IMG/VR virus record: IMGVR_UViG_3300017749_000097 | Location: 1-27,852 of that record | Length of the DNA: 27,852 nucleotides | DNA from: a virus | Direction: 5' to 3' (one strand) | Shown: piece after piece, positions 2,409 through 17,780 of the stretch | Position numbering within the stretch: the stretch's first letter is position 1 | Layout of the letters: the number at the start of each line of letters is the position of its first letter | Notes under the pieces: generated by a model | Database searches by the model: none | Seen by the model: the letters and a program-made list of their open reading frames with translations, nothing else | Told to the model about the DNA's origin: nothing | Made by a program: the position numbers and the translations under genes

Positions 2409-2420
2409 CTAGGATACCTA
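2409..2420 (-). promoter_or_regulatory. 12-bp junction element, copy 1 (TAGGTATCCTAG)
   Basis: The first three bases are the TAG stop codon of the 2072-aa fibre gene. Only nine bases separate it from the next ATG at 2399, against 18-20 at the other sites. No Shine-Dalgarno is present between element and ATG. Confidence 0.55.
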
Positions 2421-5400
2421 CAAGGCCGCGATCCTTGCCTGGAAGTCAGCGAAGTCAGCAGAAGCGGCGACCTCTGCTTGAAGCTTCGCCTTGTTGATCA
2501 CTTCAGGTAACTGAACAGGCTTGAACTTCTGGTCTGGGTTGTTCCATTGCAGGATGTCGCCTTCGGCCAGAGGTATGTCGGTCGGGCCGGTAGTGACCCG
2601 ACCGAATTCGACGAAGAGATCACCTGCAGGGCTGCCGCCTGGGAAGTCGTTGGAGTCCCAGTAAACCGCCCTTCCGGCCTGCTCCTGATTTATTCCCAGG
2701 ATCTGGTAAGGGCCATTTGTTGTTCCGTTCGCGTCGGTGTAACTAAGGCTCCAGGGCGAAGGGTCCGAAGCAATCTCGGCCCACTGGGTCGCAAAACTGT
2801 TGCCGTCCTTGTCCAGGTCGTTTAGATACAGGATTGAGCGAACTGCACCACCAGTAATTCCTACCTGGGTTCTCCATTCGCCCTGCTCATCAGGCAAGGT
2901 ATTCATCAACCTTATATCCCAAGTACCTGTGTAAATAGGAGTCGGTCCCGCTGGCATCTGATACAGCTCAAAATCATCCATGTCCTGGACTCCCAGGGAC
3001 ACCACTCCGGTCTCGCCGTTGACGCTGTCGACTGGGGCTGCAGGCGGCTGAGCAGGCGTGAACTTCTGATCGACCTCGTTCCACTGGAGAACCGATCCGG
3101 CTACTGGGGGCTGGATTGGCAAGGAGGGCAAAGGTGCTGCAGTAACCACCAGAGGCGTTCCGTCTGGCGCGTCGATGTACTCCTGAGGCCACTCGTCCTG
3201 GAGTTCCACGTAGCGCGAGTTCGAGTCGTTGTCCTTGGGGTCTCCGACGACCGTCGTCGAGTGATCGGACAGACCTGGAGAGGAGAACGTGATGGCGGTT
3301 CCATCGACCAGTGTGTCCATCGCAGCGCTCTGAGAGTTCTGCCATGAGAAATAACTGAATCCAGGACTCGAGCCCATGTTCCATTCGCCCGGAGTGGTCG
3401 TGAAGCCACCACTCTTCTTGTCAGTGTTTCCCGAGTAGAAACCGACCTCCCTGTCATAGGCAAAGTCATCCATATCTTGGATGCCAACAGTGCCCGGTAC
3501 CCACTCGCTTGACGAATTGTCATAGGTCAGCAGGTCGCCGTCACTAGGCAGAGCCAAGCTCACATCCGAGAGGTTTCCTAGAGGTAGGCCACCGGAAAGA
3601 GAGACCACTGAATCGGCGGATGCCGTCGGAGGAGTGAAGCTGGCGCCCGTGTAGCGGACAATTCCAGGAGTGATACGCAGATCGTCGATCTGACCCAGCA
3701 GCTGGCGACTGAGGGAAACGTCCCAGTTACCGACGCGCAGGACTTCGCCTGTCGTGAAATTGGTGGTGCAGTTCGCTGTGACATCAAGCACGCCATCCGT
3801 GTACGTCGAGACCTGCGTCCCTGACCTTACTACAGCGAGGTGATGCCATTGGCCCACTGTGAGGATCGTGCCGGCAAAGACGGTGATACTTTGCAGGTCT
3901 TGGAACGACCAACCGGTGGGGCCTGTGATGATCCCCCAGGTCCCGGAACCCGCTCCGACTTGGTTGCGCTTGGCGACTAGGCCGTATTCGCCTGTTCCGT
4001 CAACCTTGACCCAGAAGTCGATGGTAAAATCAGAAGGCATGTCAACGGCTGAGAATGAGCCGTACTGGAGGTGCGAGCTGCCATCGAACGTGGCCGCGTT
4101 GCCGAACTTGCCAGCGGTAGTAGTCACCGTGCCGGCGATGGCTGGAGTCACTCCGCCGACGGTGAGGGTCGTGTCGTAGGTACCTAAGAATGTGACAGAC
4201 GCACCGTATGGATCACCCTCGGTAACGTCCCAGTCGATCAGGCTCTGAGTCCCTAGCCATTCACCGGTAGAGGCACTGTAGGCGATCATCTGACCATCAC
4301 CTGGGTTGGACACCGTGACGTCACTGAGGCCGTCCAGGTCAGTAGCACCACCACCGCCACTCGGAGCAGACACCCAGTCAGCGTCTTGCCTTACATAAGG
4401 CGTGCCATCTTCAGGGGCTTCTTCGACTCCTAGGCCGACTTCAGTTAACCGAGCAGGCCTGAACTTCTGGCCAGCGTCGTCCCACTGCAGGATGTCACCT
4501 TCAGCGAGGGAGTAAAATCCAGAATTGAGGCGAGTGGAAGAGACGGTGATTGAGACTGCACCCAGGGGGATGTTTACAAACTCCTGAGGGAACACCCCAG
4601 TAACCCTGAGGAAATCGCCAGCCACATTCTCTTCGATAACAGTCGTTGCGAAATCATTTAATCCTGGAGACGAAAAGGTAATGTCGTCGCCTACCTGCAT
4701 TAGGTCCAAGGTCTCCAAAGAGGAATGCCATTGGAAGAAGTTGTCGCCGGAGTTCTGAGAAGCAACATTGTTAAAGACACAGTCACCAGGCCCCGAAAGG
4801 TCGCCAGCATTATCGACCCTGTTTGTGAAACTGACAGAGCCGAGAAGGGGCTTCAATTCAAAATCATCCATGTCCTGGATGCGCTTGGTGTCGTTATCAG
4901 CTAAGGCGGCAGGCTTAAACTTCTGGTCGGCGTCGACCCATTGCAGGACATCACCGTCGGCGAGCTGTACGTCAGTGGCGGAGTCGGTGCCGTCGGAGAT
5001 CTCGATCAGATCACCCGCGGTCGCATTGGTTAGGACAGTTTTTAGGACAGTTGACTCAAGATTGAAGCTGTCGAGATTGGCCACGCAGCCAGTGCTACTA
5101 GCAGCGTCGAGGATGAGCTGTTGCCATGAGCCACTGTTGACGCGGACGTAAAGGGTTGATCCGTTGGCGATACCTGTGACGGTTGCCTCTAAATCGTTGC
5201 CGTCAATGTCCACCCTGGACATGATCCCGCCATTGCTTTCCCGCCCGATAAATGTATCCGCCTGACAATTGTTGTCGGCTGTGGCGCTGTACTCCCACTT
5301 ACCGATCCAAGTGGTTGTAGCCGGTGGATTAACTACCAGCTCGAAGTCATTCATCTCCTGAATACCCAGGGACACGACTCCGGTCTCGCCGTTGACACTG

Positions 5401-8400
5401 TTGACAGGTGCTGCAGTTAGCTGGGCAGGCTTGAACTTCTGGACGGTGCTATTCCATTGCAGGATGTCGCCTTCAGCCAAGGGGGAGCCTGTGATTCCTA
5501 AGTAAGAATTGAACTCCACAATATCCAAAACTTGGCCGACGAACTTATCCCCAGAAAAGGGGTCAGAAGCGAAGCCGAAACTTATGCGAGGCCTATAAGC
5601 CCCTGTATCACTGGATTGATCGCTTGTACCTGTAACAGTTGCTGGGTATTCAATACCGTCAAACTTAAACGTGATAATGGTTGGCAGACTGAGAGTCGCT
5701 ATCCAAGTAATTAGATTGTTGGCTCTGTCTGTACCTAATGCGTCTATTGGCGAAACATTTACACCTCCGTTCCCGGATACATACCCCTCTCCAGGGGGCA
5801 TGCCAGAGACGTGGCTTCCACTGTTTTCGATCAACCAAGTTATATTGTTGGGAAAATTCGGCTCGTAGTCATCCATCTCTTGGATACCCAGGGACACAAC
5901 CCCTGTCTCACCATTGATGCTTTCGACCGCACCAGGTAGCTGAGCAGGTTTGAACGTCTGATCGGCGTCTACCCACTGCAAGATGTCGCCTTCAGTCAGG
6001 GGTATCGACTGCACGCCGTTGGTAGGGTCTACAAAGGTGACATAGATTTGTGCATTGCCCAGGCTGCAGTTATCGAAGACCTGATCATTCTCTAAATACA
6101 TTTGACAATAGCTGGAACCCCTGTCGACGATTCTGGTCGTCGAGGCGAACCAGTTTTGTCCATCCCCACTAAACCAAATCAAATACGGATCAGTCGGACC
6201 GGCGTCTTCCAAGGCCTGCACCTCGGCTCCAAAGTCATAACCTTGACTGTCAGTATTGCAAAAAGCCCAGCGACCTCCGCGGGGACTGTGGTCGCTATTG
6301 CAGCTGCATTCCCCAGGGTCATCAGTGGCGGAGGAGGATGCCGAACAACTAGGCGTGTCGTATCTGTAGATGAGAGCATTGGGATCGGGCTTGAGTCTGA
6401 AGTCATCCATGTCCTGGATGCGCTTGGTGTCGGCGTCAGCAGGTAACTGAGCAGGTTTGAACTTCTGGTAACTGTCACTCCACTGAAGGATGTCGCCTTC
6501 GGCCAGGGGAGAGTAGGAGACACCGACAGCGGTGAGCGAGATGTAGAGGGGGTCGGTAAGGCTCTGCGCGGCGACCTGGGCCTGGAAGGGTCCCCAGTTA
6601 GTGGCATCGATACCGAAGGCCCCGTTGTTCGTGTAGTTTTTCGTCGTACCCGTTATTTGAGTCCAGGTGTCCCCGTCGGTCGACACGTAGACCCCTTGGG
6701 AGTAGTCGTGGGCGGCAAAGGCGCCGGTCAGGTCCTGGCCGTCTCTGTCGGGGAACTTGATGTAGATCGTGCTGCCATTCGCCGTCCACTTGCCTGGGTT
6801 CGCGTTAGCGTCTTCGTTGTAATTGCCGGCAGTGAAGACAGCGGTGCTAGGAGCCGAGTCGTTCAGCTTAAAATCATCCATGTCCTGGATGCCAAGGGAG
6901 ACAACTCCCGTCTCACCATTGACGCTGTCGACTGCGCCACTGCCTGCAGGTAGCTGAGCAGGCTTGAACTTTTGGTCAGTGTTATCCCACTGCAGGATGT
7001 CGCCTTCGTAGAGAGGCAGGTAGGTCGCTTCAGACAAAGCATCGGCCTGAATAGCGATTACGTCTCCGACAACCAAAGAGGTGGCCCAGGATTGATCTCC
7101 AAATTTGAAGACCAGTCTCTTTTCTGTGCTGTTTTGGTAGTTGAAGTTTCCCCAGGTCCCGTCGTAAGTCAGGGTCCCATTGACGTAAACCTTGACCGGC
7201 GAACTGACCAGCGCAAAAAGCTCTGTCTCTAAGTCCCGGCCATCGCTAGAGATGGTGGAGATCGACCAGTCGGTACTTGTTGCAGTTCTGTCACTGATCT
7301 CGCCAGACTCTGGATTCAACACGTCGTCTCCCACGTAAGTCCAGGGAACGGCTGACTCGGCTGACTCAGCTAGCTCGAAGTCGCCAGCCTCCTGGATGTT
7401 GCTGATACCCGTGGCGGGGAAGGCAGGCTTGAAGGTGTTGCCGGACTCGTCGTAGGTTAAGACCTGGCCATCAGTGGCTCCAGGTCCGGGGATGGTGGTG
7501 AGGCGAATCCCGTCGGGGAAGTTGACGTTGTCGAAGACCTCAGTGCTGTCGGTGGACTTGATCGACCAATACGTGACCGGGGCGGATGTGTCGATCTGCA
7601 AGAAGGTCGCGGTCTTGATCACGCCGTCCTTCTCGTACGGGATCTCGTCCCCAGCCTGCAGCGTCTGGACGAAGGCGGTGAGGTCGATGCCGCTGTGGCT
7701 GATCAGGCTCAGGAAGGCCTCGTCCTTGCGATCTTCTTCAGAGCCGCGCACCCATGAACCATCGGGGCTGTCCGCCTCAGGGGCGCCGCTGATCCCCAGG
7801 TAGTTCTCCCATGTGTCCCCTGTCAGGGAGGCGCTGACGTTGCTCAGGTCGTACAAGCTGAGGGACACCGCGCCCGTCTTGCCGTTGACGCTGTCAACCG
7901 CGGGCTGAGGGATGACCGGCAGGTCTACCAGGTCGTTGTACGAGCCGGTGGTCGCCACCGTGGAGTAGGTCGGGAGGGGTTGGTTCTTGTAGACGCCCTC
8001 GCTCTCCACGTACTGGATGACGTCACCGTCCCGTGTCACTGGCTGGTCCCCTGCCCCAGTTGCGACCTGGATACTGCTGACGTTACCGAAGTCGAACCCA
8101 GTCGCCTGGATCGCGAAGTACGGAGGGTTGTTCTCTGGCCGATTTCTGTAGAGGAGGGCGGCCTGGAAGATGGCCCCGCCGTCGACGCTGAACTGGACGG
8201 TGTCGGGTGCGCCCTCATCTTCTGGTGTCAAGCCATCAAGGAACGGCTCGTAGGAGTCGCCGTTGTCGTCGCTGATGTGGAAGTACGCCAGCTCGGGGTC
8301 GTTGGTGCCTCGAATCCACTCACCAGCAACCTGAGCCAGGCCTTCAACCCCGCCGTAGTTGCTCCACACGAGCGCATCCCCTTGGTTCGTCTGCTCGACG

Positions 8401-8636
8401 TCGCTGAGGTCTGTGATGCCCAGGGTCACGGCGCCAGCCTGACCATTAACTGAAGAGACACCTGTCGATCCTATGCCACTGCTCAGGTCGATGACGGACC
8501 CGTCTGAGTGCTTGGTGTAGAGCTTCCCGTCGGCAGTGTTTATAGCTATCTCGCCCGTAACAAGCTCGCTTTGTAAAGGGACTTCACCAGAGACCGTACT
8601 TCTTTTTGGTTGCAGAGGGCCTGAAAGTGAAGTCAT
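2418..8636 (-). CDS. Giant modular tail fibre / adhesin protein (2072 aa)
   Basis: A very large, beta-rich, cysteine-poor virion protein, probably a trimeric or filamentous host-recognition fibre. The N-terminus (about 1-60) has the cyanophage fibre pattern GEIAINTADGKLYTKHSDG, shared with the next gene upstream, and likely anchors the protein. About ten modules of 110-130 residues follow. The best-preserved ones are bounded by a linker reading VDSVNGETGVVSL then GIQDMDDFEL before the module, and LAEGDILQW plus DQKFKPAQLP after it. Modules differ strongly but share a D-x-x-G-x-DL core and an 'S-DG--W' strand. A LamG-like (concanavalin-fold) domain lies at about nt 3620-4190 (GNAATFDGSSHLQYG, FTIDFWVKVDG, QWHHLAVVRSG, IDDLRIT), a fold that commonly binds glycans. 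The C-terminus (ASADFADFQARIAAL) resembles endings of other cyanophage virion proteins. Whether it is a fibre, a fibril or a capsid decoration is not decided by sequence alone. Confidence 0.82.
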   Translation of the reverse strand: MTSLSGPLQPKRSTVSGEVPLQSELVTGEIAINTADGKLYTKHSDGSVIDLSSGIGSTGVSSVNGQAGAVTLGITDLSDVEQTNQGDALVWSNYGGVEGLAQVAGEWIRGTNDPELAYFHISDDNGDSYEPFLDGLTPEDEGAPDTVQFSVDGGAIFQAALLYRNRPENNPPYFAIQATGFDFGNVSSIQVATGAGDQPVTRDGDVIQYVESEGVYKNQPLPTYSTVATTGSYNDLVDLPVIPQPAVDSVNGKTGAVSLSLYDLSNVSASLTGDTWENYLGISGAPEADSPDGSWVRGSEEDRKDEAFLSLISHSGIDLTAFVQTLQAGDEIPYEKDGVIKTATFLQIDTSAPVTYWSIKSTDSTEVFDNVNFPDGIRLTTIPGPGATDGQVLTYDESGNTFKPAFPATGISNIQEAGDFELAESAESAVPWTYVGDDVLNPESGEISDRTATSTDWSISTISSDGRDLETELFALVSSPVKVYVNGTLTYDGTWGNFNYQNSTEKRLVFKFGDQSWATSLVVGDVIAIQADALSEATYLPLYEGDILQWDNTDQKFKPAQLPAGSGAVDSVNGETGVVSLGIQDMDDFKLNDSAPSTAVFTAGNYNEDANANPGKWTANGSTIYIKFPDRDGQDLTGAFAAHDYSQGVYVSTDGDTWTQITGTTKNYTNNGAFGIDATNWGPFQAQVAAQSLTDPLYISLTAVGVSYSPLAEGDILQWSDSYQKFKPAQLPADADTKRIQDMDDFRLKPDPNALIYRYDTPSCSASSSATDDPGECSCNSDHSPRGGRWAFCNTDSQGYDFGAEVQALEDAGPTDPYLIWFSGDGQNWFASTTRIVDRGSSYCQMYLENDQVFDNCSLGNAQIYVTFVDPTNGVQSIPLTEGDILQWVDADQTFKPAQLPGAVESINGETGVVSLGIQEMDDYEPNFPNNITWLIENSGSHVSGMPPGEGYVSGNGGVNVSPIDALGTDRANNLITWIATLSLPTIITFKFDGIEYPATVTGTSDQSSDTGAYRPRISFGFASDPFSGDKFVGQVLDIVEFNSYLGITGSPLAEGDILQWNSTVQKFKPAQLTAAPVNSVNGETGVVSLGIQEMNDFELVVNPPATTTWIGKWEYSATADNNCQADTFIGRESNGGIMSRVDIDGNDLEATVTGIANGSTLYVRVNSGSWQQLILDAASSTGCVANLDSFNLESTVLKTVLTNATAGDLIEISDGTDSATDVQLADGDVLQWVDADQKFKPAALADNDTKRIQDMDDFELKPLLGSVSFTNRVDNAGDLSGPGDCVFNNVASQNSGDNFFQWHSSLETLDLMQVGDDITFSSPGLNDFATTVIEENVAGDFLRVTGVFPQEFVNIPLGAVSITVSSTRLNSGFYSLAEGDILQWDDAGQKFRPARLTEVGLGVEEAPEDGTPYVRQDADWVSAPSGGGGATDLDGLSDVTVSNPGDGQMIAYSASTGEWLGTQSLIDWDVTEGDPYGASVTFLGTYDTTLTVGGVTPAIAGTVTTTAGKFGNAATFDGSSHLQYGSFSAVDMPSDFTIDFWVKVDGTGEYGLVAKRNQVGAGSGTWGIITGPTGWSFQDLQSITVFAGTILTVGQWHHLAVVRSGTQVSTYTDGVLDVTANCTTNFTTGEVLRVGNWDVSLSRQLLGQIDDLRITPGIVRYTGASFTPPTASADSVVSLSGGLPLGNLSDVSLALPSDGDLLTYDNSSSEWVPGTVGIQDMDDFAYDREVGFYSGNTDKKSGGFTTTPGEWNMGSSPGFSYFSWQNSQSAAMDTLVDGTAITFSSPGLSDHSTTVVGDPKDNDSNSRYVELQDEWPQEYIDAPDGTPLVVTAAPLPSLPIQPPVAGSVLQWNEVDQKFTPAQPPAAPVDSVNGETGVVSLGVQDMDDFELYQMPAGPTPIYTGTWDIRLMNTLPDEQGEWRTQVGITGGAVRSILYLNDLDKDGNSFATQWAEIASDPSPWSLSYTDANGTTNGPYQILGINQEQAGRAVYWDSNDFPGGSPAGDLFVEFGRVTTGPTDIPLAEGDILQWNNPDQKFKPVQLPEVINKAKLQAEVAASADFADFQARIAAL
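2505..7476 (-). repeat. Array of near-identical linkers separating diverged modules (2072-aa gene)
   Basis: Conserved linkers lie at about 2505-2572 (half), 2969-3098, 3463-3545 (diverged), 4447-4510 (half), 4859-4963, 5341-5482, 5866-6000, 6400-6508, 6869-7013 and 7377-7470 (diverged). Each full copy encodes end-of-module EGDILQW...DQKFKPAQLP and start-of-next-module VNGETGVVSL...QDMDDF. Between them lie unlike inserts of about 350-400 bp at 2573-2968, 3099-3462, 4511-4858, 4964-5340, 5483-5865, 6001-6399, 6509-6868 and 7014-7376. Two more diverged modules lie at about 7480-7850 and 7980-8340. Linkers at 4859 and 6400 share a shortened form with DTKRIQDMDDF in place of the VNG half. Confidence 0.88.
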
Positions 8637-8655
8637 TACTTACGTTAACACTGGG

Positions 8656-8667
8656 CTAGGATTCCTA
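8656..8667 (-). promoter_or_regulatory. 12-bp junction element, copy 2 (TAGGAATCCTAG)
   Basis: It follows the TGA stop of the 1429-aa gene with no gap and lies 19 nt before the ATG at 8636. TAGGA-A-TCCTA is a perfect palindrome around one base. The 19-nt spacer has no Shine-Dalgarno. Confidence 0.6.
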
Positions 8668-11600
8668 TCACCCAGATCCAAAAGTCCCTCCATCTATGCC
8701 GTTGAGCTGTACAGGGTAGAACTTCTGGGCCCCTTCATCCCATTGAATAATATCACCCTCAGCAAGCTGAATCTGAGCAGTGGTGGGATCAATAGGTGAT
8801 ATGTAAGCAGCCGTTGGCCAATAGGTTTCAGGATCAGGTACTGCTGCTACGCCAACAGCAAATAAGGTTGTGTTGCTAGAACTAAAGGTGGTGTAATAGT
8901 CGACAGTAGATTCAGTCCAAATAACACCGTCTTGACTCACCCAAACAGGAGAGCCGATTTGCAAAGACTCAAACCCACTTTGATAGCTATTACCGTATGA
9001 GTCTGTTGAATCAACTCTGATGTGTGTTAATTGCTCAGACCACTGACCTGCACTCGGCACACCGCATCCGCCACACTCTGTTAGCCACGTAGGGCCGGGA
9101 GCACTTAATAGAGTGAAGTCATCCATGTCCTGGATACCCAGGGACACAACCCCTGTCTCACCATTAACACTGTCAACAGCACCGTCAACGCCTGCGGGTA
9201 GCTGAGCAGGTTTGAACTTCTGCTCGCTGTCGTCCCACTGCAGGATGTCGCCTGCGGTTAAGGGGACAGGAGTCCCCCCAAATGAGCCAGCCACTGTCGA
9301 ACCCGAGACCGTCAGCTCTGAGCCGCTCGTGGCATCATCTAGTTCAGTGTCAACGGCTTCGACGAACAAGAGCCTCGTCGTTGCCGAGCCGTTATGGTTG
9401 GGAATAACTTGTTCGACCGTGTAGGCGAACAGGCCGGTTCCACCGACGAGCTGGAGGTTCAAGGTGTCCCCAGCTTGGATGTTGCTCATCCATGGAGCGG
9501 GGAAGACGTAGAGGCTCGTGCCGCTCATGAACCACTTGTCGGCAGACGTGACCAGACCAGAGCCGGCCACCAAGTCGGTGAGGGTCTCGGAGGTGTTGTT
9601 TATCGAGTTCAGCCCAAAATCATCCATGTCCTGGACTCCCAGGGACACCACTCCGGTCTCGCCGTTGACGCTATCAACAGCTCCGCCGCCACCTGAGGGC
9701 AATTGAGAAGGCTTGAACTTTTGGTCAGCATCGTTCCACTGCAGGATGTCGCCTTCTGCTAAGGGCATGTCCACGCTTGAGCCTGGCGCAGCGAAGGACA
9801 GGTAGATCAAGGATCCATTGGTAGGCCTCGTTCCGCTCGTGATGTCGATGTAGTAGCTGTCGGCGAAGACACCTTGAACCGCTCCAGTGAAAAAGACCTC
9901 AACCCACGAAGCCCCGTCAGTGCTCCAGAAGATCGAGCCGGATGCCGCTGTTATCGCTGCTGTTTGATCGACACCGTTATCGTCAACACCACCAAAGGAC
10001 AGGCGGGTTGAGTTCACAAACCAAAGACCGTTACCCGGGAAGCTCTCAGTCCCAGCCTCGTATGGAGCCCCGGAAGGGAGTTGCAGCGGTTTAAAGTCAT
10101 CCATGTCCTGGATGCCCAGGCTGACGACTCCTGTTTCACCATTGACGCTTTCGACCGCACCGCCATCGAAATCTGCGGGCCTGAATGCCGAGGCCGTGGA
10201 GTCATAAACCAGGACCTGTCCCTGTACTGGCTCTACCTCAGTTTTGTCAGTGCCCACGACAATGGCAGCTGCGTTTATCAACTCAGAATTTGGCGCCTCG
10301 TTGAACTGGTACCTTGTAGAGACGCCGCCGCCCCAATCCGAGACAATTGCTTGAATCGTGAACGTGTAAATGGTAGGGAGGTCTGCCGGTTTAATAGTGA
10401 TTGTCGAGCCGACGGTTATGGTGTCGCTCCAACCCCCAGGGAGCGCATAAAGACTCGTTGGAGAGATGACAAAATCATCTGCAGAGTTAATAGAGATATG
10501 GCCGGGCACTTTGTTGGTGAGTCCTGAGTAGTCGCCAGTGCTGGGCTCCTTCTCGACGTCTGTTAGGTCGAAGATGCTGCCTGAACTGCCACCACTGACC
10601 GTGCCGGGCTGCCATTTTTGATCAGCTTCAACCCATACCAACGCTTGGCCGTCTGTCGGTGGAGTCGTCTCGGTGTCAACGTCATCTAGATCGCTGATCG
10701 TTGCCAGGTCGATGATCGTGCGGTCGTCCAGGACAATCGTGCGACCTGCTGGTGTTGTTGGAGGCGTAAAACCGAGGTTATCGTACAGCTCGACGCCAAC
10801 GATCAACTCAGTTGCGTCCAGGTGTCCCTGATAGAACAAGGTGCCAGTCAAGTCACCGCGACCACCCAGGATGAAGCCATTTCCGTTGTCGAAGGGGATC
10901 GGCTGTGCGAGTGCGGCGGAACCATCAATAGCCCCGTCGAGAAATATCCGATAGGTACCAAACCCGTCGTGTTGGATAGCCAGGTGGTGCCATTCTTGAT
11001 CACCGACATAGGTCTGACCAGAGACGATCGAAGCATCGTGGTGCAGTTCCCAGGCGCCCTGGGATGGGCCAGCTTCGCCGTTCCTCCGGATCTGGAACTG
11101 GTTGGCCAGGTTGGCGCCATCGCGACCGGCGATCATCCGCGAGTAGACGGTTGGGTCTGTCCCGAGGTCCTTGAACCAGGTCTGGAAGGTGAAAGGCTTG
11201 GTCCACAGATAGCCAGGATCACCGAAGGGACTCGTCGGGTAGTTGCCCAGCAAATATTCAGCGTCAGCGATGTCGGCGTTGAACAGGATCGACTGGTTGC
11301 CAACCACTGAGTCGGTCGACATGCTCGCCGGAGGATTGCCGCCAAAGGTCGGGCTGTCCGTGCCGTCTCCCTCGTAGTTGAAGGAGATACCAGAAGTGAC
11401 CGCGAAGGCGGGACTCCCAAGGTCGATCGAGGCGCCTGACAGATCCCAAGTCAAGTTCCCATCTGTGTCAGTCCTCAATCGTCCACCATTGACCGGAGCA
11501 GGCGGGAACGTGTAGGTAGTGTTGACGGACAGGCCTGCGGGCAGCTTGAGTCCGATGTATTCACCAGTTGAATCAACTGGGTTGCCAGAAGTCCAGCGCA

Positions 11601-12957
11601 GCTCGGGGGTGTTGTCGGTATAACTGGAGAGTGCGCCGTTTAACCAAAGCGGCTTATCGCCCAGGTTGTGGATGACCCCCTTGTCGGAGTAATAGGTGCG
11701 TCGGGCTTCGTTGGCCCTTTCTCGCGAATTAGCGATGGTGCCACCGTTTGTCGTGTCCAGGTGGTACCTGCCGATCACCAGGCCGTATTGAGCGTTGGTA
11801 TAAACCGCCCAAACCTCATCGTCTTTGGTGGGGTAGGCCGAGAACCCGATCTCCCCCAGGGATGTGGGATTGAAGTAGGCGTAGGGCTTAGTGTCATCCC
11901 CGCCGACATCCTGCAGTGTGTAGCCAGCCTGTGGCACGTTCTCGAGACTATGCTCGATTGACTTCCATTTTTTCTCGACGCTGTCGTAACGAAGGATACT
12001 CTTGTCAGGTGTTGAAGGGGTGCCCGCAGCGAAGAAGGAAACAACGTCGTTAGAATCGAGGGTCGGGTCACTCAATCCCCAAGAAAGTGTGTCCACCGAT
12101 TTGACGCTTAACTTGTCAACGTACCTGAGGCCGGCGGCGGGGTTGACTGAACTTGTGCTGAAATAGAAGCGAGTGTCGTCTGGAGCTGTTGGCGCCACAT
12201 AGCTGACGCCGTTATCGCCAGGGCTCGACGAGTCGACCGCGATTGTGCCATCAACCCACAAAGACCACCTGGCCGGAACAGTACTGCGTCCGTTTGCCCA
12301 GTCAATGACATAGAGGATCTCGTACCAGGTGTCAGCTACCATAGCCGGCTTAGTGCCAGCCTCGAAGAAGGCTCCGTCAGCATAGAGGGCGAAGCCTGTA
12401 TCGCGTGTGTAGACCGTCCAGCCACTACCGGCCGCTAGTTCTTGCTTGTTGCCGCCAAGGCTCTGGCGGTTTGTTGTCGTAAAGGCTTGGTTGGAGCGGA
12501 TATACAGCTGGACGACATCATAGCGAAGGGTGCTGTCGTTGCCGGGAAATATGTCTTTGAGGTGGCTGCCGTCGCCGTACTGGTTCACGGCAGTATCGAA
12601 GCGGACCGAGCGTGTGCCTTCATAGAAGATCGTCAGATCAGCAGGAGGAATCGGATCTTGTGGATAAGGGGCCCCTTCCTCGAAGCTGGTCCCGTAGGCG
12701 CTGGCAGTAACCAGGGAATCGACATCCTCGATGTCATCCATACTGATAACGACGACGCCGGTTTGACCGTTGACGCTATCAACAGCTCCACCGCCGCCGC
12801 CCGATATTTCCTTGATCGTGCCGTCGGTATGCTTTGTGAAGAACTTTCCGTCAGCCGTGTTGACAGCAATTTCGGCGACTTCTAGGTCCGCTGACTGAGG
12901 GGACTCGCCAGAAGTTCCAGAAGCTTTTGCTATTAGTCGGGCGTTAAGCTCTGTCAT
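8668..12957 (-). CDS. Modular tail fibre protein with LamG domain (1429 aa)
   Basis: The second giant fibre. Its N-terminus (EIAVNTADGKFFTKHTDG) is paralogous to that of the 2072-aa protein, followed by a VDSVNGQTGVV linker. A jelly-roll-like region at about nt 12100-12700 (SVRFDTAVNQYGDGSHL, DTWYEILYVIDW, WSLWVDGTI) suggests a first concanavalin-type domain. A 'PELRWTSGN...GEYIGLKLPAGL' block follows at about 11440-11620, paralogous to one in the 1591-aa protein. A clear LamG domain lies at about 10745-11310 (SILFNADIADAEYLLG, PFTFQTWFKD, QEWHHLAIQHDG, RIFLDGAIDG). The C-terminal 600 residues hold four linker-bounded modules of the type seen in the 2072-aa protein. The protein ends GGTFGSG, the same tail as the 1591-aa protein. 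It probably contributes to the same adhesion apparatus as its two neighbours. Confidence 0.82.
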   Translation of the reverse strand: MTELNARLIAKASGTSGESPQSADLEVAEIAVNTADGKFFTKHTDGTIKEISGGGGGAVDSVNGQTGVVVISMDDIEDVDSLVTASAYGTSFEEGAPYPQDPIPPADLTIFYEGTRSVRFDTAVNQYGDGSHLKDIFPGNDSTLRYDVVQLYIRSNQAFTTTNRQSLGGNKQELAAGSGWTVYTRDTGFALYADGAFFEAGTKPAMVADTWYEILYVIDWANGRSTVPARWSLWVDGTIAVDSSSPGDNGVSYVAPTAPDDTRFYFSTSSVNPAAGLRYVDKLSVKSVDTLSWGLSDPTLDSNDVVSFFAAGTPSTPDKSILRYDSVEKKWKSIEHSLENVPQAGYTLQDVGGDDTKPYAYFNPTSLGEIGFSAYPTKDDEVWAVYTNAQYGLVIGRYHLDTTNGGTIANSRERANEARRTYYSDKGVIHNLGDKPLWLNGALSSYTDNTPELRWTSGNPVDSTGEYIGLKLPAGLSVNTTYTFPPAPVNGGRLRTDTDGNLTWDLSGASIDLGSPAFAVTSGISFNYEGDGTDSPTFGGNPPASMSTDSVVGNQSILFNADIADAEYLLGNYPTSPFGDPGYLWTKPFTFQTWFKDLGTDPTVYSRMIAGRDGANLANQFQIRRNGEAGPSQGAWELHHDASIVSGQTYVGDQEWHHLAIQHDGFGTYRIFLDGAIDGSAALAQPIPFDNGNGFILGGRGDLTGTLFYQGHLDATELIVGVELYDNLGFTPPTTPAGRTIVLDDRTIIDLATISDLDDVDTETTPPTDGQALVWVEADQKWQPGTVSGGSSGSIFDLTDVEKEPSTGDYSGLTNKVPGHISINSADDFVISPTSLYALPGGWSDTITVGSTITIKPADLPTIYTFTIQAIVSDWGGGVSTRYQFNEAPNSELINAAAIVVGTDKTEVEPVQGQVLVYDSTASAFRPADFDGGAVESVNGETGVVSLGIQDMDDFKPLQLPSGAPYEAGTESFPGNGLWFVNSTRLSFGGVDDNGVDQTAAITAASGSIFWSTDGASWVEVFFTGAVQGVFADSYYIDITSGTRPTNGSLIYLSFAAPGSSVDMPLAEGDILQWNDADQKFKPSQLPSGGGGAVDSVNGETGVVSLGVQDMDDFGLNSINNTSETLTDLVAGSGLVTSADKWFMSGTSLYVFPAPWMSNIQAGDTLNLQLVGGTGLFAYTVEQVIPNHNGSATTRLLFVEAVDTELDDATSGSELTVSGSTVAGSFGGTPVPLTAGDILQWDDSEQKFKPAQLPAGVDGAVDSVNGETGVVSLGIQDMDDFTLLSAPGPTWLTECGGCGVPSAGQWSEQLTHIRVDSTDSYGNSYQSGFESLQIGSPVWVSQDGVIWTESTVDYYTTFSSSNTTLFAVGVAAVPDPETYWPTAAYISPIDPTTAQIQLAEGDIIQWDEGAQKFYPVQLNGIDGGTFGSG
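8683..10226 (-). repeat. Linker array in the 1429-aa fibre gene
   Basis: Linkers lie at about 8683-8764 (C-terminal half copy), 9115-9265, 9615-9766 and 10092-10226 (second half diverged). The inserts are 8765-9114, 9266-9614, 9767-10091 and about 10227-10560, each 325-350 bp. Bases 9615-9672 are identical over 58 nt to 2969-3026 in the neighbouring fibre gene, and 35 nt starting at about 9131 match the linker starting at about 5881, so the two genes' arrays have exchanged sequence or share a recent origin. Confidence 0.87.
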
Positions 12958-12977: not shown

Positions 12978-12989
12978 CTAGGATTCCTA
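12978..12989 (-). promoter_or_regulatory. 12-bp junction element, copy 3 (TAGGAATCCTAG)
   Basis: The first three bases are the TAG stop of the 1591-aa gene. The spacer to the ATG at 12957 is 20 nt. A GGAG occurs in it, but 15-18 nt before the ATG, too far for a normal ribosome site. Confidence 0.6.
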
Positions 12990-15900
12990 CAGGCCTGAAC
13001 CAAATGTTCCTCCGGAGATAGAGGTGATGACTTGATTACCATAAGCGATGATGGTAACGTCGCAGCTCAGATCGTTGCCTTCGGAATCTCTTACAGCTAC
13101 ATACATAGCTTCTGTCATAGTGACGTCGTTGTTGAAGTAGGTCGTCCCAGGGGTTGCCAATGCCACCTGATCAGCCTCGACATAGAACTCCGCAAATACT
13201 CCAGAGCCTAGAGCTGGATCCGTATCGAATGCACGCGACGAGTCTGCAGTCCGATCAGCCTCTGATCCGTAGACAACGATCCAGGCTGGGGCTGTAGCAG
13301 CCACTGAAACAATCGCTCCGGAATGCCCTAATCCAGTAAAGGACGCCTCGCCGTCGACGGCAGACTGGGTCTCGTTTAAACGGGTTCCTGTCGATCCACC
13401 ACCACCACCACCGGAAGGCACCCCTGTGACGCTTGGATAGGCCTTGACATCAATAATGGCAGAGTCTATCAGTGTCCCATCAGTTCCTCTCACGAGAGCA
13501 TAGACAGCGCTCGTAGCTGGAGTATCATTATTGAAGTAAACTGTTCCCGGAGTTGCTAGAACGCTTGTCCCGGCCAAGACATAGGCTTCTGAAAGGATTC
13601 CGGAACCTGGCTGAGGATCTTCCCCGAAGGCTCTACCGGTGTCAGCCGTTCTGAGGGCAGCTGTAGGATACAGCGTAATCCAGGCGTCTACGTCACACCC
13701 GAATTCTACAAGGATGCCGCTTAGTCCTATCTCTTCGAACGTTACCAACCCAGCCGCGGTGGTAGCAGTTTCCGAAACCAGGTCAGCCGCTGCACCGCCA
13801 CCGCCCCCGCTACCCCCACCGGTCGCCTCGAATTTAATCTCTTTTACGAGGGTGTCTGGATTTGTGGTGATAGAAATACCAGAGCCTGCAATAAACTTGA
13901 TAGGTTCTTCGCCAGCAGGAGCCAGGGTAGCCTGTCCGTCTACATACCAAGGAGCGAACGAACTTCCGAGTTCAATAAAAGCTTCCCCACTTCCTAGGTC
14001 GGTTACGCTGAAGCCATTACCGGTATTGAAAGAGAGAGTGGAAACGTTGCTGGTTATTCCCAAGGGAGCCCCATTAGCTCCGTTCTTTGCTTGAACTGTT
14101 AGTGGAGAGCCTTCTCCTCCTCCGGAACCACCATCAGTCCAGGACATCACACCAGAGCCGTCAGTAGACAGCACTTGTCCTGCTGAGCCGTCTAACGCAG
14201 GCAGGATATAAGTCTGATCAATCGTGACACCTGCAGGCATCTTCAGGCCGATGTAATTGCCTGTTGGACTGGCACCTGTTGCGTTGCCGGACACCCAGCG
14301 CAACTCTGGCTGATTGGTCGCACCCGCCGCCGCGCCGGACAGGCGGATGATTTGAGAGCCTTCAGACCTTAGTTCAATGCCCTTCGCGGGGTGAGCGTAA
14401 ACGAACGAACCTTCAGTATTAGAGGTGTTGTAGGCGCCCATCGCCAGCCCGTAAGCTGAGTTGGCGTAGATCTTCCACGTCTCGAGAGCGGGTACGTCGG
14501 CGCTGCTGAATACAACCTGATCGAGTGCGTCGATCTCAAGCGAGCCACTCGAGTAGCTGACGTCTGTAAGGTCATCCAGTGCCAGCTCTACACCTCCGAG
14601 ACCGCCAGTAACAATAATCTGACCAAACATTGAAGCATGGGCAGTGCACTGGTAGTACAGGACGTCAGGAGCGTCCATAGGTACCACCCATTCGATGGTT
14701 CCTGCGGCTAAAGGCTGAGTTCCTGTAACCCCTTCTTCGTAAGCAGTCCGGCCAGTCCCAGGCAAGGATTGCAGTTGAAACGGGTGAGGCGTGACTAACT
14801 TTTCGAAAATGTAAGTCTGCCCACGCATAACATAAAGAGTCGGATCGGCCGTGGGGCCGGCAAAGCCAGGACCACTAAAGAGGTAGTCCGAAGACCCCGA
14901 GTTAGAGATGGTCCATCGAATTTCAAAATCTCCTAGCGAAACAGGACCCCATGAAGATCCCTGCCAAACGAGCGCTTGTCCGTTCGAGGGAGCGGTTGAC
15001 TCTACGTCGATGAGATCGCCCAGCGTAAGAATGACATCCCCTGTCTCTCCGTTGACGGAGCTAACGCCTGCCGAAATCTGAGGACTCGCGGGCTTCCATA
15101 GGTTGTCCTTGAAGTCATACTGTAGGATAGAATCCGACGAGAGTGTGTACCCTTCTTGAGGACTTATTTCAAATTTAACAAAAAACGCTTGATTTAACCC
15201 AGACTGCAAGAGAAGCTCTGAAGCCTCTGACGAAATATCAAAATAGCTATACACACCTGTGCTGTCAACCCGAGGAGAGACCTGTAGGGGAATCCAAGTC
15301 TCTTCTTCGGCTTTTCTAATATAAGCGTTATTCTGATTGGCTGCCAACTCTCTCCTGTTTACGCCTGCCGCATCAATATTGTTGAAGAACAAGCGGTACT
15401 CGCCCGTCCCATCAGGCAGAGTCGTAAATTGCAGCTCTACACCTCCGGCCAGACCCGAAGTCTTTTTCACGTAAGGGAAACCAACCTCTAAGTCGGTAAC
15501 GCTTTCAGTGAAGACATCATTAATATCCGCAACATCAAGAACGACTTCACCTGTCTGACCATTAACAGAATCGACCGGAATCTCTAGAAGCCGCCTCTGG
15601 ATCAGGCTAACAGCGATGGAGACAGGGTTAGGGGCAACATAGTCTGAATAGAAGCTAAGAGTATAGGTACTTGTGCCAGTTCTTTCCAGCAAATTTGAGA
15701 CACTCAGACCTGTCGCCCTAGTACCTCCGCCGGAGTAGAAATAAGTAACGTTTACCCAGACGTCGTCCCCTTCTGCAATGATAGAGTCGAAAACACTGGC
15801 GGCGGAAACGTTGTTTGCGGTAAACTCGTTCAATACCAGCGTATGCTCGTAAGTAGCTTGCTGACCGTTAAAAGCAACAAGCGTCGAAAAGAAGCCCGCC

Positions 15901-17762
15901 GCGCTCGCCTCAGGCTCGGTAAGCACTCTTGTGTTCCAGGGGGCTCCTTGCAGGTATATAGAACCCACCTCGCTGTAGACCGGAGTCGGTATCCAGTTCG
16001 AGCCGTCCCAGACTAGCGCCTGGTTAAAGTTTGGAGGAACAGTGGTAACATCTACGTCATAAACATCGCCAATACTGTTTCGGCTCAGAGGTACTGTCTC
16101 CGCGTAGATCGCCAAAGGTGTTCTGGAACTACTGCTGACACTGTCCGACCGTCCAATCGTAAGCCCTTCAGAAGGAGCGTTCGGTGGTACTGTCCACGCC
16201 AGAGGTGCGCCGACAACTCCGACACCAGACATCCCTCCGTCGACATACGTGCCCTGGCTCGACCTGACACTGATGCCTACCGTATCGTCTAAGGAAGTAA
16301 ACCGGTACGAGAGACCAGGCACCAATACCAGTAGGTCGGGCTGGGAATACCCGTCTGTAATACCCTCTCCAGAGATTGTTGGCGGACTTGCGTTGACGTC
16401 AATGGTGTACTCTATAAGGCCGTTGCCTACAGGGGGATAGGTGTCGTACCATCCAAGATTTCCCGTGCCGTCAGTACCAAGGACCTGGCCACTTCCACCA
16501 GTCGCGGCAGGAAGAACTAGCTCGTAGTCTTGAGTATCCGTATCCGTAGACAGCGTTACAGCGTTCGAGATGTTGACAGTATTTATATTAGTGCCATTTG
16601 TCTTACCTAGGCGCAATATTCCTTTTTGAGTGTTACCGACGGAAAAGGGCGTTCCGGCTTCGGTTATAACACCATCGTAACCGTAGAACCTGCTACTCCC
16701 AAGAGTAAGTCTCTTTTGTTGGGCTGTAGAGAATGATATACTAGCTGCATAGGTACTGTTAAGCAGCTCGACACTGTTATCGAATGCGTCCGAGACGCTC
16801 TCGTCGTTAACAACCAAGCCCGCATGATCGACATATACAGTATTGCTAGAAACTCTTACGTCACTCAATCCATCAAGATCTCCCGTGAAGCCGGCCACGG
16901 CGAGCCAACTAGAACTGTCCTCGTCCCATCGTATGTAGTCGCCGTCCTCAAGGCCTGTTAAGTCGACGTCGCCGATAGAGCCGAGAGAAGAACTGCTCAG
17001 GTCTGGTGCCGGACCCACGCTCCAGTACCATCCGCCGGACCCGTCGGAAGTTAGAACCCTGCCCGACTCCCCTATTTCATCAGGCAGAGTCCAGACAATG
17101 TTAGAGCTTAAGCTTGAAGATGAACGGAATCCAGAATATTGCGTATTACCTTGCAGGTATAGGCGGATCTCAGCATCTCCCGTATTGTCTTGCGGTCCCG
17201 CAAAGTTCGTGATTCCACTTGCCGAATAGAGGCTCATGGGAGTCCCGGGGCTACTGCCAACCCTTACGCCACGAACTAAATTGTTGGTATACCTGACACC
17301 CATGAAGAGATCTCCTGATCCCGCCTGCTGGGAGATGTGACCAGTCGCTCCGATTCTATAACCATCAGCTATAGCAGAAGTGTCAATCAAAGTCTGAGCA
17401 GTGCCGGGAAATGGGGTCCCTATACCGAGAATATAAGTGCTAATGCCGTCAAGGTCCGTGACGTTGTAATTAGCTGGCTTCCACAGGCTTTCTGACTCGT
17501 CCCATCGTATAACCTGCCCATCAACCAGTCCGCCCAGGTCTACGTCTTCGAGACCGCCCAGAAAGGCCGCGTCACTGCCTCCAAATTGTACAACGTTTCC
17601 CTGGTTGTCAACAGTAAACAGCCGCGCAGATCCAGCGCTAAGACCAAGAACAAGCTCTCCGCGAAGAATCTCGTCAGAACCTCCAGGAGCAATGGCTGCA
17701 GTGATGTCAGCTCCCGACTCCTCAGAATTTTTTAAAACAATTCTGTCGGGATAAACTGCCAT
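12987..17762 (-). CDS. Modular tail fibre protein with cupredoxin-like domain (1591 aa)
   Basis: The third giant fibre, first of the three in transcription order. The ATG at 17762 (MAVYPDRIVLKN) is preferred over an in-frame TTG two codons upstream because it lies exactly 18 nt from the junction element. In order it contains: short 'LxGLEDVDLGGLVDGQVIRWDE' type blocks; two 'WTLP...GRVLTSDGSGGWYW' type blocks; a ligand-free cupredoxin-like region (about nt 16090-16410); two divergent copies of the 110-130-residue module (about 15600-15960 and 15130-15500); a cupredoxin-like domain with HPF and YYQCTAHASMFGQ (14601-14928); a 'PELRWVSGN...YIGLKMPAGV' block; and two tandem copies of a roughly 110-residue domain (about 13440-13795 and 13020-13392: R-TADT-RAF...DP-GSG...E-YV...ATPGT-YFNND). 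It ends GGTFGSGL. It is probably a virion fibre; the exact location is unknown. Confidence 0.8.
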   Translation of the reverse strand: MAVYPDRIVLKNSEESGADITAAIAPGGSDEILRGELVLGLSAGSARLFTVDNQGNVVQFGGSDAAFLGGLEDVDLGGLVDGQVIRWDESESLWKPANYNVTDLDGISTYILGIGTPFPGTAQTLIDTSAIADGYRIGATGHISQQAGSGDLFMGVRYTNNLVRGVRVGSSPGTPMSLYSASGITNFAGPQDNTGDAEIRLYLQGNTQYSGFRSSSSLSSNIVWTLPDEIGESGRVLTSDGSGGWYWSVGPAPDLSSSSLGSIGDVDLTGLEDGDYIRWDEDSSSWLAVAGFTGDLDGLSDVRVSSNTVYVDHAGLVVNDESVSDAFDNSVELLNSTYAASISFSTAQQKRLTLGSSRFYGYDGVITEAGTPFSVGNTQKGILRLGKTNGTNINTVNISNAVTLSTDTDTQDYELVLPAATGGSGQVLGTDGTGNLGWYDTYPPVGNGLIEYTIDVNASPPTISGEGITDGYSQPDLLVLVPGLSYRFTSLDDTVGISVRSSQGTYVDGGMSGVGVVGAPLAWTVPPNAPSEGLTIGRSDSVSSSSRTPLAIYAETVPLSRNSIGDVYDVDVTTVPPNFNQALVWDGSNWIPTPVYSEVGSIYLQGAPWNTRVLTEPEASAAGFFSTLVAFNGQQATYEHTLVLNEFTANNVSAASVFDSIIAEGDDVWVNVTYFYSGGGTRATGLSVSNLLERTGTSTYTLSFYSDYVAPNPVSIAVSLIQRRLLEIPVDSVNGQTGEVVLDVADINDVFTESVTDLEVGFPYVKKTSGLAGGVELQFTTLPDGTGEYRLFFNNIDAAGVNRRELAANQNNAYIRKAEEETWIPLQVSPRVDSTGVYSYFDISSEASELLLQSGLNQAFFVKFEISPQEGYTLSSDSILQYDFKDNLWKPASPQISAGVSSVNGETGDVILTLGDLIDVESTAPSNGQALVWQGSSWGPVSLGDFEIRWTISNSGSSDYLFSGPGFAGPTADPTLYVMRGQTYIFEKLVTPHPFQLQSLPGTGRTAYEEGVTGTQPLAAGTIEWVVPMDAPDVLYYQCTAHASMFGQIIVTGGLGGVELALDDLTDVSYSSGSLEIDALDQVVFSSADVPALETWKIYANSAYGLAMGAYNTSNTEGSFVYAHPAKGIELRSEGSQIIRLSGAAAGATNQPELRWVSGNATGASPTGNYIGLKMPAGVTIDQTYILPALDGSAGQVLSTDGSGVMSWTDGGSGGGEGSPLTVQAKNGANGAPLGITSNVSTLSFNTGNGFSVTDLGSGEAFIELGSSFAPWYVDGQATLAPAGEEPIKFIAGSGISITTNPDTLVKEIKFEATGGGSGGGGGAAADLVSETATTAAGLVTFEEIGLSGILVEFGCDVDAWITLYPTAALRTADTGRAFGEDPQPGSGILSEAYVLAGTSVLATPGTVYFNNDTPATSAVYALVRGTDGTLIDSAIIDVKAYPSVTGVPSGGGGGGSTGTRLNETQSAVDGEASFTGLGHSGAIVSVAATAPAWIVVYGSEADRTADSSRAFDTDPALGSGVFAEFYVEADQVALATPGTTYFNNDVTMTEAMYVAVRDSEGNDLSCDVTIIAYGNQVITSISGGTFGSGL

Positions 17763-17780
17763 TTTCAAGATTAAGCTAGA

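What the first reader, a model, noticed from the sequence alone, without database searches (positions are those of the whole stretch)
2505..10560. Cassette-like array of diverged modules between near-identical linkers across two fibre genes
At least twelve inserts of about 325-400 bp, unlike one another at DNA level, sit between linkers of about 100-150 bp that are nearly the same in DNA as well as protein. Each insert still shows a common core (D-x-x-G-x-DL, then an 'S-DG--W' strand), so they look like one domain family diversified far beyond its linkers. Identical linkers give homologous recombination places to swap, gain or lose modules in frame. This would be a mechanism for changing host-recognition modules without a reverse transcriptase or an invertase. 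I know VNG-ETG-like fibre repeats from marine phages; an organised cassette interpretation is my inference.
Basis: partly seen in the sequence, partly recalled or inferred. Interest (0 to 1): 0.72.

Follow-up and report, generated by a model that had tools for sequence, protein, structure and literature searches.

The report
Mosaic module array in cyanophage tail fibres
Two giant tail-fibre genes of an uncultured virus of marine Synechococcus are strings of a dozen very different small domains set between one repeated spacer, and related viruses carry the same domains in other genes and other orders, so the domains appear to have been swapped over evolutionary time through the spacers, a variant of the known mixing of phage host-recognition parts.

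Summary
The array is real. The window is a fragment of a cyanosiphophage related to Synechococcus phages S-CRES1-3 and S-CBS2. Fibre genes F1 (2418-8636) and F2 (8668-12957) hold 12 inserts of 108-131 aa between spacers 'LAEGDILQW..KFKPAQL' and 'SVNGETGVVSLGIQDMDDF'; weaker copies lie at the F1 N-terminus and in F3. The spacers are not nearly identical in DNA: mean pairwise identity is about 75%, and 84% among the closest. They share more synonymous codons than codon usage predicts. One F1/F2 pair is identical over 58 nt; codon-shuffled nulls never exceed 31. So some exchange was recent, but most spacers are old. The inserts are largely one beta-rich family.

Relatives do not keep modules in order. 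F2_m1 has homologues in three other phages, in differently built genes. L093 holds homologues of an F2 and an F1 module in one gene. L014 has a different module in the last F1 slot, between spacers 83% identical. Module hits run from 0 to about 14. No reverse transcriptase, invertase or integrase was found in relatives, but five of eleven encode a Rad52-like Sak annealase. The best reading is mosaic evolution by homologous recombination at spacers. There is no evidence of fast, programmed shuffling, and receptor binding is inferred.

The parts
2418..8636 (-). F1: giant tail-fibre gene, 2072 aa, with 8 modules plus a LamG domain
   Evidence: N-terminus matches long-tail-fibre PHROGs; LamG at aa 1519-1655
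8668..12957 (-). F2: second giant fibre gene, 1429 aa, with 4 modules plus a LamG domain
12987..17768 (-). F3: third fibre gene, 1593 aa; one weak module copy (about 15087-15578) and compact spacers
2571..2963 (-). insert F1_m8
   Evidence: also in L013 at 100%
3108..3455 (-). insert F1_m7 (related to m6)
3582..4229 (-). LamG (concanavalin-like) domain of F1; 56% identical homologue in L094
4509..4853 (-). insert F1_m6
4965..5336 (-). insert F1_m5; homologue in L093 (33%)
5481..5858 (-). insert F1_m4
6000..6392 (-). insert F1_m3
6507..6857 (-). insert F1_m2
7014..7376 (-). insert F1_m1; homologue in L099 (36%)
7413..8396 (-). two weaker, diverged modules at the F1 N-terminus (N2 7413-7835, N1 7911-8396)
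   Evidence: module HMM 51.5 and 39.9 bits; coordinates
8767..9108 (-). insert F2_m3
9262..9609 (-). insert F2_m2 (related to m0)
9763..10086 (-). insert F2_m1; 56% identical homologue in S-CBS2 gp031, others in L093 and L096
   Evidence: predicted structure
10231..10554 (-). insert F2_m0
2969..3026 (-). 58-nt spacer tract identical to 9615-9672
9615..9672 (-). 58-nt spacer tract identical to 2969-3026
5881..5915 (-). 35-nt spacer tract identical to 9131-9165 in F2
6403..6432 (-). 30-nt tract of the variant 'DTKRIQDMDD' spacer, identical to 4864-4893
9709..9762 (-). representative A half of the spacer (LAEGDILQWNDADQKFKP); other copies at 2517, 4455, 4911, 5427, 5946, 6453, 6960, 8713, 9208
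9118..9171 (-). representative B half of the spacer (SVNGETGVVSLGIQDMDD); other close copies at 2973, 5346, 5868, 6873, 9619, 10096

Best explanation
F1 and F2 are tail fibres of an S-CBS2/S-CRES-like Synechococcus siphophage. Each is built from a compact fibre spacer whose two halves (B: VNGETGVVSLGIQDMDD; A: GDILQW..KFKPAQL) flank a small beta-rich domain of about 110-130 aa. In other phages the same spacer is closed, with only a short loop between the halves. The domains are mostly members of one family plus related subfamilies. They have been gained, lost and exchanged between fibre genes and between phages of the group, most likely by homologous recombination or annealing at the spacers, which are the only stretches alike in DNA. 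This is probably driven by phage-encoded single-strand annealing proteins of the Rad52-like Sak type. The likely use is to vary the surface that the fibre presents to cyanobacterial envelopes. Shown: the architecture, the DNA similarity confined to spacers, the non-collinear module homologues, the copy-number variation, and one recent F1/F2 exchange tract. Inferred: the use of Sak, the receptor-binding role, and selection for diversity.
For: Array and spacers. Excess synonymous identity. 58-, 35- and 30-nt identical tracts against codon-shuffled nulls. Module homologues in different genes and contexts (F2_m1 in S-CBS2 gp031 at 56%, L093 and L096; F1_m5 in L093; F1_m1 in L099; F1 LamG in L094 at 56%). 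Different N- and C-terminal partners of the same modules and caps. L093 carries homologues of F2_m1 and F1_m5 in one gene. L014 (MCP 94% identical) has spacers 83% identical to the window's around a non-alignable last module, while the neighbouring scaffold/MCP stretch is 76%; its upstream tract matches 4363-4415 at 91%. Module hits: window 14, S-CBS2 5, S-CRES3 2, S-CRES1/2 none. In several contigs of one sample, similarity within fibre genes is confined to short, many-to-many spacer-like stretches (81-93%). The closed spacer is seen in L098. Sak in 5 of 11 relatives, including S-CRES2 and S-CRES3. Rad52-like recombinases act on short, diverged homology: PMC3945230.
Against: Most spacers are only about 75% identical. 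Synonymous agreement is at or below that of capsid genes compared between phages. The identical-tract signal is strong here (58 nt) and above the null in L093 and L024, but absent or within the null in L025, L094, L096, L099 and L102 (the S-CBS2 test there was spoiled by a frame error and is not used). Two module pairs (m6/m7 and F2_m0/m2) look like old in-array duplicates. No within-population module change was observed. The insert model has no convincing match among solved structures, so binding is untested. Sak was not found in S-CBS2, and the window fragment does not reach the recombination genes.
Confidence: 0.68

Rival explanations
1. Tandem duplication in place followed by divergence: the array grew within this lineage, inserts diverged under relaxed or positive selection, and spacers stayed alike because they fold the fibre shaft.
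For: m6/m7 and F2_m0/F2_m2 are each other's best detectable relatives. Spacer protein is highly conserved, and average spacer codon divergence is old.
Against: Other modules with detectable relatives find them in other phages, in differently built genes (F2_m1 at 56% to S-CBS2, with no window module found at E 1e-3). L014 has another module at the F1 end. Codon-shuffled nulls do not give a 58-nt identical tract.
Confidence: 0.2
2. A dedicated, fast cassette-shuffling system: spacers act as recombination sites that rearrange modules within the phage population during growth, like phase variation.
For: Identical 58-, 35- and 30-nt tracts between spacers. The overlapping contig L013 stops 24 nt inside insert m7, next to a spacer.
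Against: Spacers are mostly diverged. The overlap with L013 shows no variant. Phage pairs at 96% identity or more show no module change, though few of them carry modules. No invertase, integrase or reverse transcriptase was found in relatives.
Confidence: 0.06
3. Assembly artefact: repeats caused mis-joined modules in this metagenomic contig.
For: The record is an uncultured fragment, and repeated spacers can mislead assemblers.
Against: Both frames are open over 2072 and 1429 codons. L013, a separate IMG/VR record, agrees at 100% over 3132 nt. The isolate S-CBS2 has the same kind of modules. The repeats are short and diverged.
Confidence: 0.04

Closest known systems
[quoted passage not shown] 1998, cited in PMC3797505)
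   Same: Variable recognition segments lie between conserved motifs that serve as recombination points; no special recombinase is needed.
   Different: There the variability lies in the distal fibre tip and its adhesin. Here up to 12 whole domains are strung along the fibres, set inside the two halves of a shaft spacer. Binding is shown for T-even phages and not here. The 1998 paper itself was not readable with these tools.
Domain mosaicism of phage receptor-binding proteins (Smug et al. 2023, PMC10684548)
   Same: Unrelated fibre proteins share homologous domains in different combinations; ongoing shuffling is a general property of tail fibres.
   Different: That survey describes shared domains generally; the word 'linker' does not occur in its main text. 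This case shows a repeated spacer as a plausible exchange point in a long array.
Fibre proteins gp031 and gp032 of Synechococcus phage S-CBS2
   Same: Same module family and spacer type; direct homologue of F2_m1; same locus between tail and head genes.
   Different: 5 module hits instead of about 14; different N- and C-terminal partners and spacer variants.
Diversity-generating retroelements and invertible fibre genes
   Same: Outcome: variable fibre surface.
   Different: No reverse transcriptase, serine or tyrosine recombinase in the relatives searched; variation is of whole domains.
FtbO fibre protein in PDB 9j1l
   Same: Contains the VNG-TG-V-L motif of the B half (E 1.1e-5).
   Different: Only about 32 residues of the spacer match; no insert domain.

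Membership tests
Phage tail-fibre mosaicism by recombination between conserved motifs (T-even gp37/gp38 type) | Conserved motifs flank variable segments | tested here: met
   Spacers alike at DNA level, inserts not
Phage tail-fibre mosaicism by recombination between conserved motifs (T-even gp37/gp38 type) | Related phages carry different variable segments at the same place or the same segment at different places | tested here: met
   L014 against the window; F2_m1 in S-CBS2, L093 and L096
Phage tail-fibre mosaicism by recombination between conserved motifs (T-even gp37/gp38 type) | Swapping changes receptor specificity | not testable with these tools
   No binding or host-range data; no convincing fold match in the PDB
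Diversity-generating retroelement | Reverse transcriptase in the genome | tested here: not met
   RVT_1 absent from 10 relatives; no such gene among the window ORFs that were annotated; the rest of the window's genome is not held
Invertible or site-specifically recombined fibre cassette | Serine or tyrosine recombinase encoded by the phage | tested here: not met
   Resolvase and Phage_integrase absent from 8 relatives
S-CBS2/S-CRES-like cyanosiphophages | Homologous major capsid protein and tail-fibre-scaffold-capsid gene order | tested here: met
   MCP 81-87% identical; same order in S-CRES2 and S-CBS2
Single insert-domain family | All inserts homologous | tested here: inconclusive
   7 of 12 clearly one family; m1, m6, m7 marginal; F2_m0/m2 a separate pair; the second structure model is too poor to decide (pLDDT 57)

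The most novel reading that the evidence does not exclude
A general, recombinase-free cassette system of marine cyanosiphophages: a shared fibre spacer acts as a community-wide 'open slot' that accepts interchangeable binding domains in frame, so that fibres of co-occurring phages draw on a common pool of modules at rates fast enough to track host surface changes.
Probability: 0.15. Interest if true: 0.75.

Novelty: new variant of a known kind. Interest (0 to 1): 0.47.

Why it matters
Fibre mosaicism is well known, but how in-frame exchange happens inside a gene is rarely visible. Here the exchange points, the exchanged domains and a plausible phage enzyme (Sak) can all be named, and spacer-like stretches are shared between different phage contigs in one sample. 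If the domains bind host surfaces, this gives a testable picture of how cyanophages could keep up with the variable envelopes of Synechococcus without a retroelement or invertase.

Tried and rejected
Searching IMG/VR for close relatives carrying the same inserts found only L014 for F1, and no relative for F2, so breakpoints could not be mapped in a near-identical pair. Fold search of the insert against the PDB gave only V-/F-ATPase barrel matches at E above 0.02 and TM about 0.3, which I reject as chance. The viral library finds two proteins of the lengths of S-CBS2 gp031/gp032 first, then domains in marine phage proteins named 'collagen triple helix repeat', with TM about 0.45 and poor superposition; suggestive only. 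The second subfamily model (A3) is too poor to use. One script used wrong frames for S-CBS2, so its S-CBS2 row is discarded. I considered that codon bias alone explains spacer identity; rejected for the 58-nt pair, but it accounts for a large share elsewhere.
Full report
WHAT THE WINDOW IS. The window is one virus record of 27,852 bases. Its major capsid protein (170-1054, minus) is 87, 86, 83 and 81% identical to those of Synechococcus phages S-CRES2, S-CRES1, S-CRES3 and S-CBS2. The gene order tail tape measure - tail genes - fibres - scaffold - capsid is the same there. The three genes F1 (2418-8636), F2 (8668-12957) and F3 (12987-17768) are fibres: their N-terminal or tail-region parts match tail-fibre or baseplate-connector PHROGs, and F1 and F2 each have a LamG domain.

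CHECK OF THE OBSERVATION. F1 contains eight and F2 four inserts of 108-131 aa between two conserved half-spacers. The A half is 'LAEGDILQWNDADQKFKP' and the B half 'SVNGETGVVSLGIQDMDD'. A profile of the modules finds further, weaker copies at the F1 N-terminus (two) and in F3 (one). Spacer DNA is alike but not nearly identical: mean pairwise identity is 0.757 for the A half and 0.746 for the B half, 0.835 among the seven closest B copies. At amino acids shared by two spacers the same codon is used 0.62 (A) and 0.53-0.55 (B) of the time, against 0.43 and 0.34-0.35 expected from codon usage. So there is common DNA ancestry beyond protein constraint. Capsid genes of different phages in the clade nevertheless agree at 0.62-0.71, so the average spacer looks as old as, or older than, the split between these phages.

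RECENT EXCHANGE. The longest identical tract in the fibre genes is 58 nt, between the B spacers in front of F1_m8 (2969-3026) and F2_m2 (9615-9672). The next are 35 nt (F1 5881-5915 = F2 9131-9165) and 30 nt (variant spacer in front of m3 and m6). In 200 randomisations keeping every protein and each gene's codons, the longest tract averaged 21.5 and never exceeded 31 nt. All 27 tracts of 18 nt or more lie in spacers. At least one exchange between the two genes was therefore recent and ended at, or very near, the insert boundary. Other phages vary: L024 has a 46-nt and L093 a 33-nt identical spacer tract, above their nulls (maxima 23 and 26); L025, L094, L096, L099 and L102 have none above theirs (the S-CBS2 row of that call is unusable because of a frame error).

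MODULES MOVE. Inserts with detectable relatives often find them in other phages, in genes built differently. F2_m1 is 56% identical to the first module of S-CBS2 gp031 and also has homologues in L093 and L096. F1_m5 matches L093, F1_m1 matches L099, and the F1 LamG matches L094 at 56%, whose capsid protein is only 59% identical to the window's. The genes that hold F2_m1 relatives have different N-terminal attachment domains (F2: MTELNARL; S-CBS2 gp031: PSNRVPVRVARG; L093: the F3-type VFPDRIVLKN). L093, L037 and L014 share the F1-type C-terminal cap (window FADFQARIAAL; L093 FADFQSRIAAL; L037 FSDFQTRMAAL; L014 FADFQARIAAL). L093 holds homologues of an F2 and an F1 module in one gene. Only m6/m7 and F2_m0/F2_m2 look like in-array duplicates.

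A SYNTENIC TEST. L014 (MCP 94% identical) covers the 3' end of its F1 gene. Compared with the window, the spacers on either side of the last module are each about 83% identical, and the scaffold-capsid stretch beside it is 76%, while the module between the spacers does not align. Upstream, the tract matching window 4363-4415 (91%) is followed directly by a module in L014, but by LamG, m7 and m8 in the window. This is what gain, loss or replacement between spacers predicts. In L025, L093, L098 and L102, contigs of one sample, shared DNA in fibre genes is confined to short many-to-many spacer-like stretches of 81-93% identity. Module hits per phage run from none (S-CRES1/2) through 2 (S-CRES3) and 5 (S-CBS2) to 14 (window). 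L047 and L052, 92-97% identical around the capsid gene, have fibres with different N-terminal and middle parts but the same C-terminal part.

THE SLOT. In L098 the same B half (SVNGETGVVSLGIQDMDD) is followed by only a short loop and then the A half (DGQVLTWVDANNQWEP). The module is therefore an insertion between the two halves of a common compact fibre spacer, which occurs both closed and filled. AlphaFold2 predicts the F2_m1 insert as a compact, mainly beta domain (pLDDT above 90 over much of the core). No solved structure matches convincingly. The best viral matches are two proteins of the lengths of S-CBS2 gp031/gp032, then proteins annotated as collagen-repeat proteins of marine phages.

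MECHANISM. No reverse transcriptase, serine recombinase or tyrosine recombinase was found in 8-10 relatives. A Sak-type single-strand annealing protein was found in 5 of 11, including S-CRES2, S-CRES3 and the two 66-kb contigs behind L015 and L024. Rad52-like phage recombinases recombine short and diverged sequences with relaxed fidelity (PMC3945230; the passages read there concern Red-beta, Erf and RecT types tested in vivo, while Sak is discussed from biochemical work by others). Spacers of roughly 60-130 nt at 75-90% identity are plausible substrates. That Sak does this here is inference.

LIMITS. There is no evidence of fast or programmed shuffling. The one contig of the same phage (L013) is 100% identical over 3132 nt. 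Phage pairs at 96% identity or more are collinear through their fibres, though most of them carry few modules. The window lacks the rest of its genome, and no reads were available. The receptor-binding role rests on location in fibres and variability alone.

COMPARISON. [quoted passage not shown] 1998, cited in PMC3797505), and it is a case of the domain shuffling of receptor-binding proteins surveyed in PMC10684548. What differs is the anatomy: a long in-line array, a module set inside a splittable spacer, and exchange between neighbouring fibre genes of one genome. I file it as a new variant of a known kind.

Noticed in passing
window 17809-19317 (-): A 502-aa protein (weak DUF7107 hit below cut-off) sits just upstream of the fibres; at a similar place L047 and L052 have Cys-rich 433- and 359-aa ORFs that look strongly diverged although the phages are 92-97% identical around the capsid gene.
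   Followed up: no
L028/L032 versus L060: These contigs are 100% identical over about 6.5 kb including the fibre region, but only about 85-88% identical across the capsid gene: a recombination breakpoint beside the fibres, or a chimeric assembly.
   Followed up: no
L047 and L052, fibre ORFs: Close relatives (92-97% around the capsid gene) have fibres with entirely different N-terminal and middle parts but a nearly identical C-terminal domain ending in SSDYRLKS.
   Followed up: partly
L013 position 1 = window 3132: A separate contig identical to the window stops 24 nt inside insert m7, close to a spacer; this could mark a branching point in the assembly (population variants) or simply low coverage.
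   Followed up: no
window 20853-24305 (-): A 1150-aa tail protein with no PHROG match; the proteins at the same place in S-CRES1/2 and S-CBS2 are annotated as pyocin R2, tail protein or unknown structural protein.
   Followed up: no
L096, ORF at 8143: The C-terminal 400 residues or so of this fibre are a long run of GGDF-type Gly-rich repeats, unlike the other fibres; a short related end (GGTFGSG) closes F2, F3 and S-CBS2 gp031.
   Followed up: no
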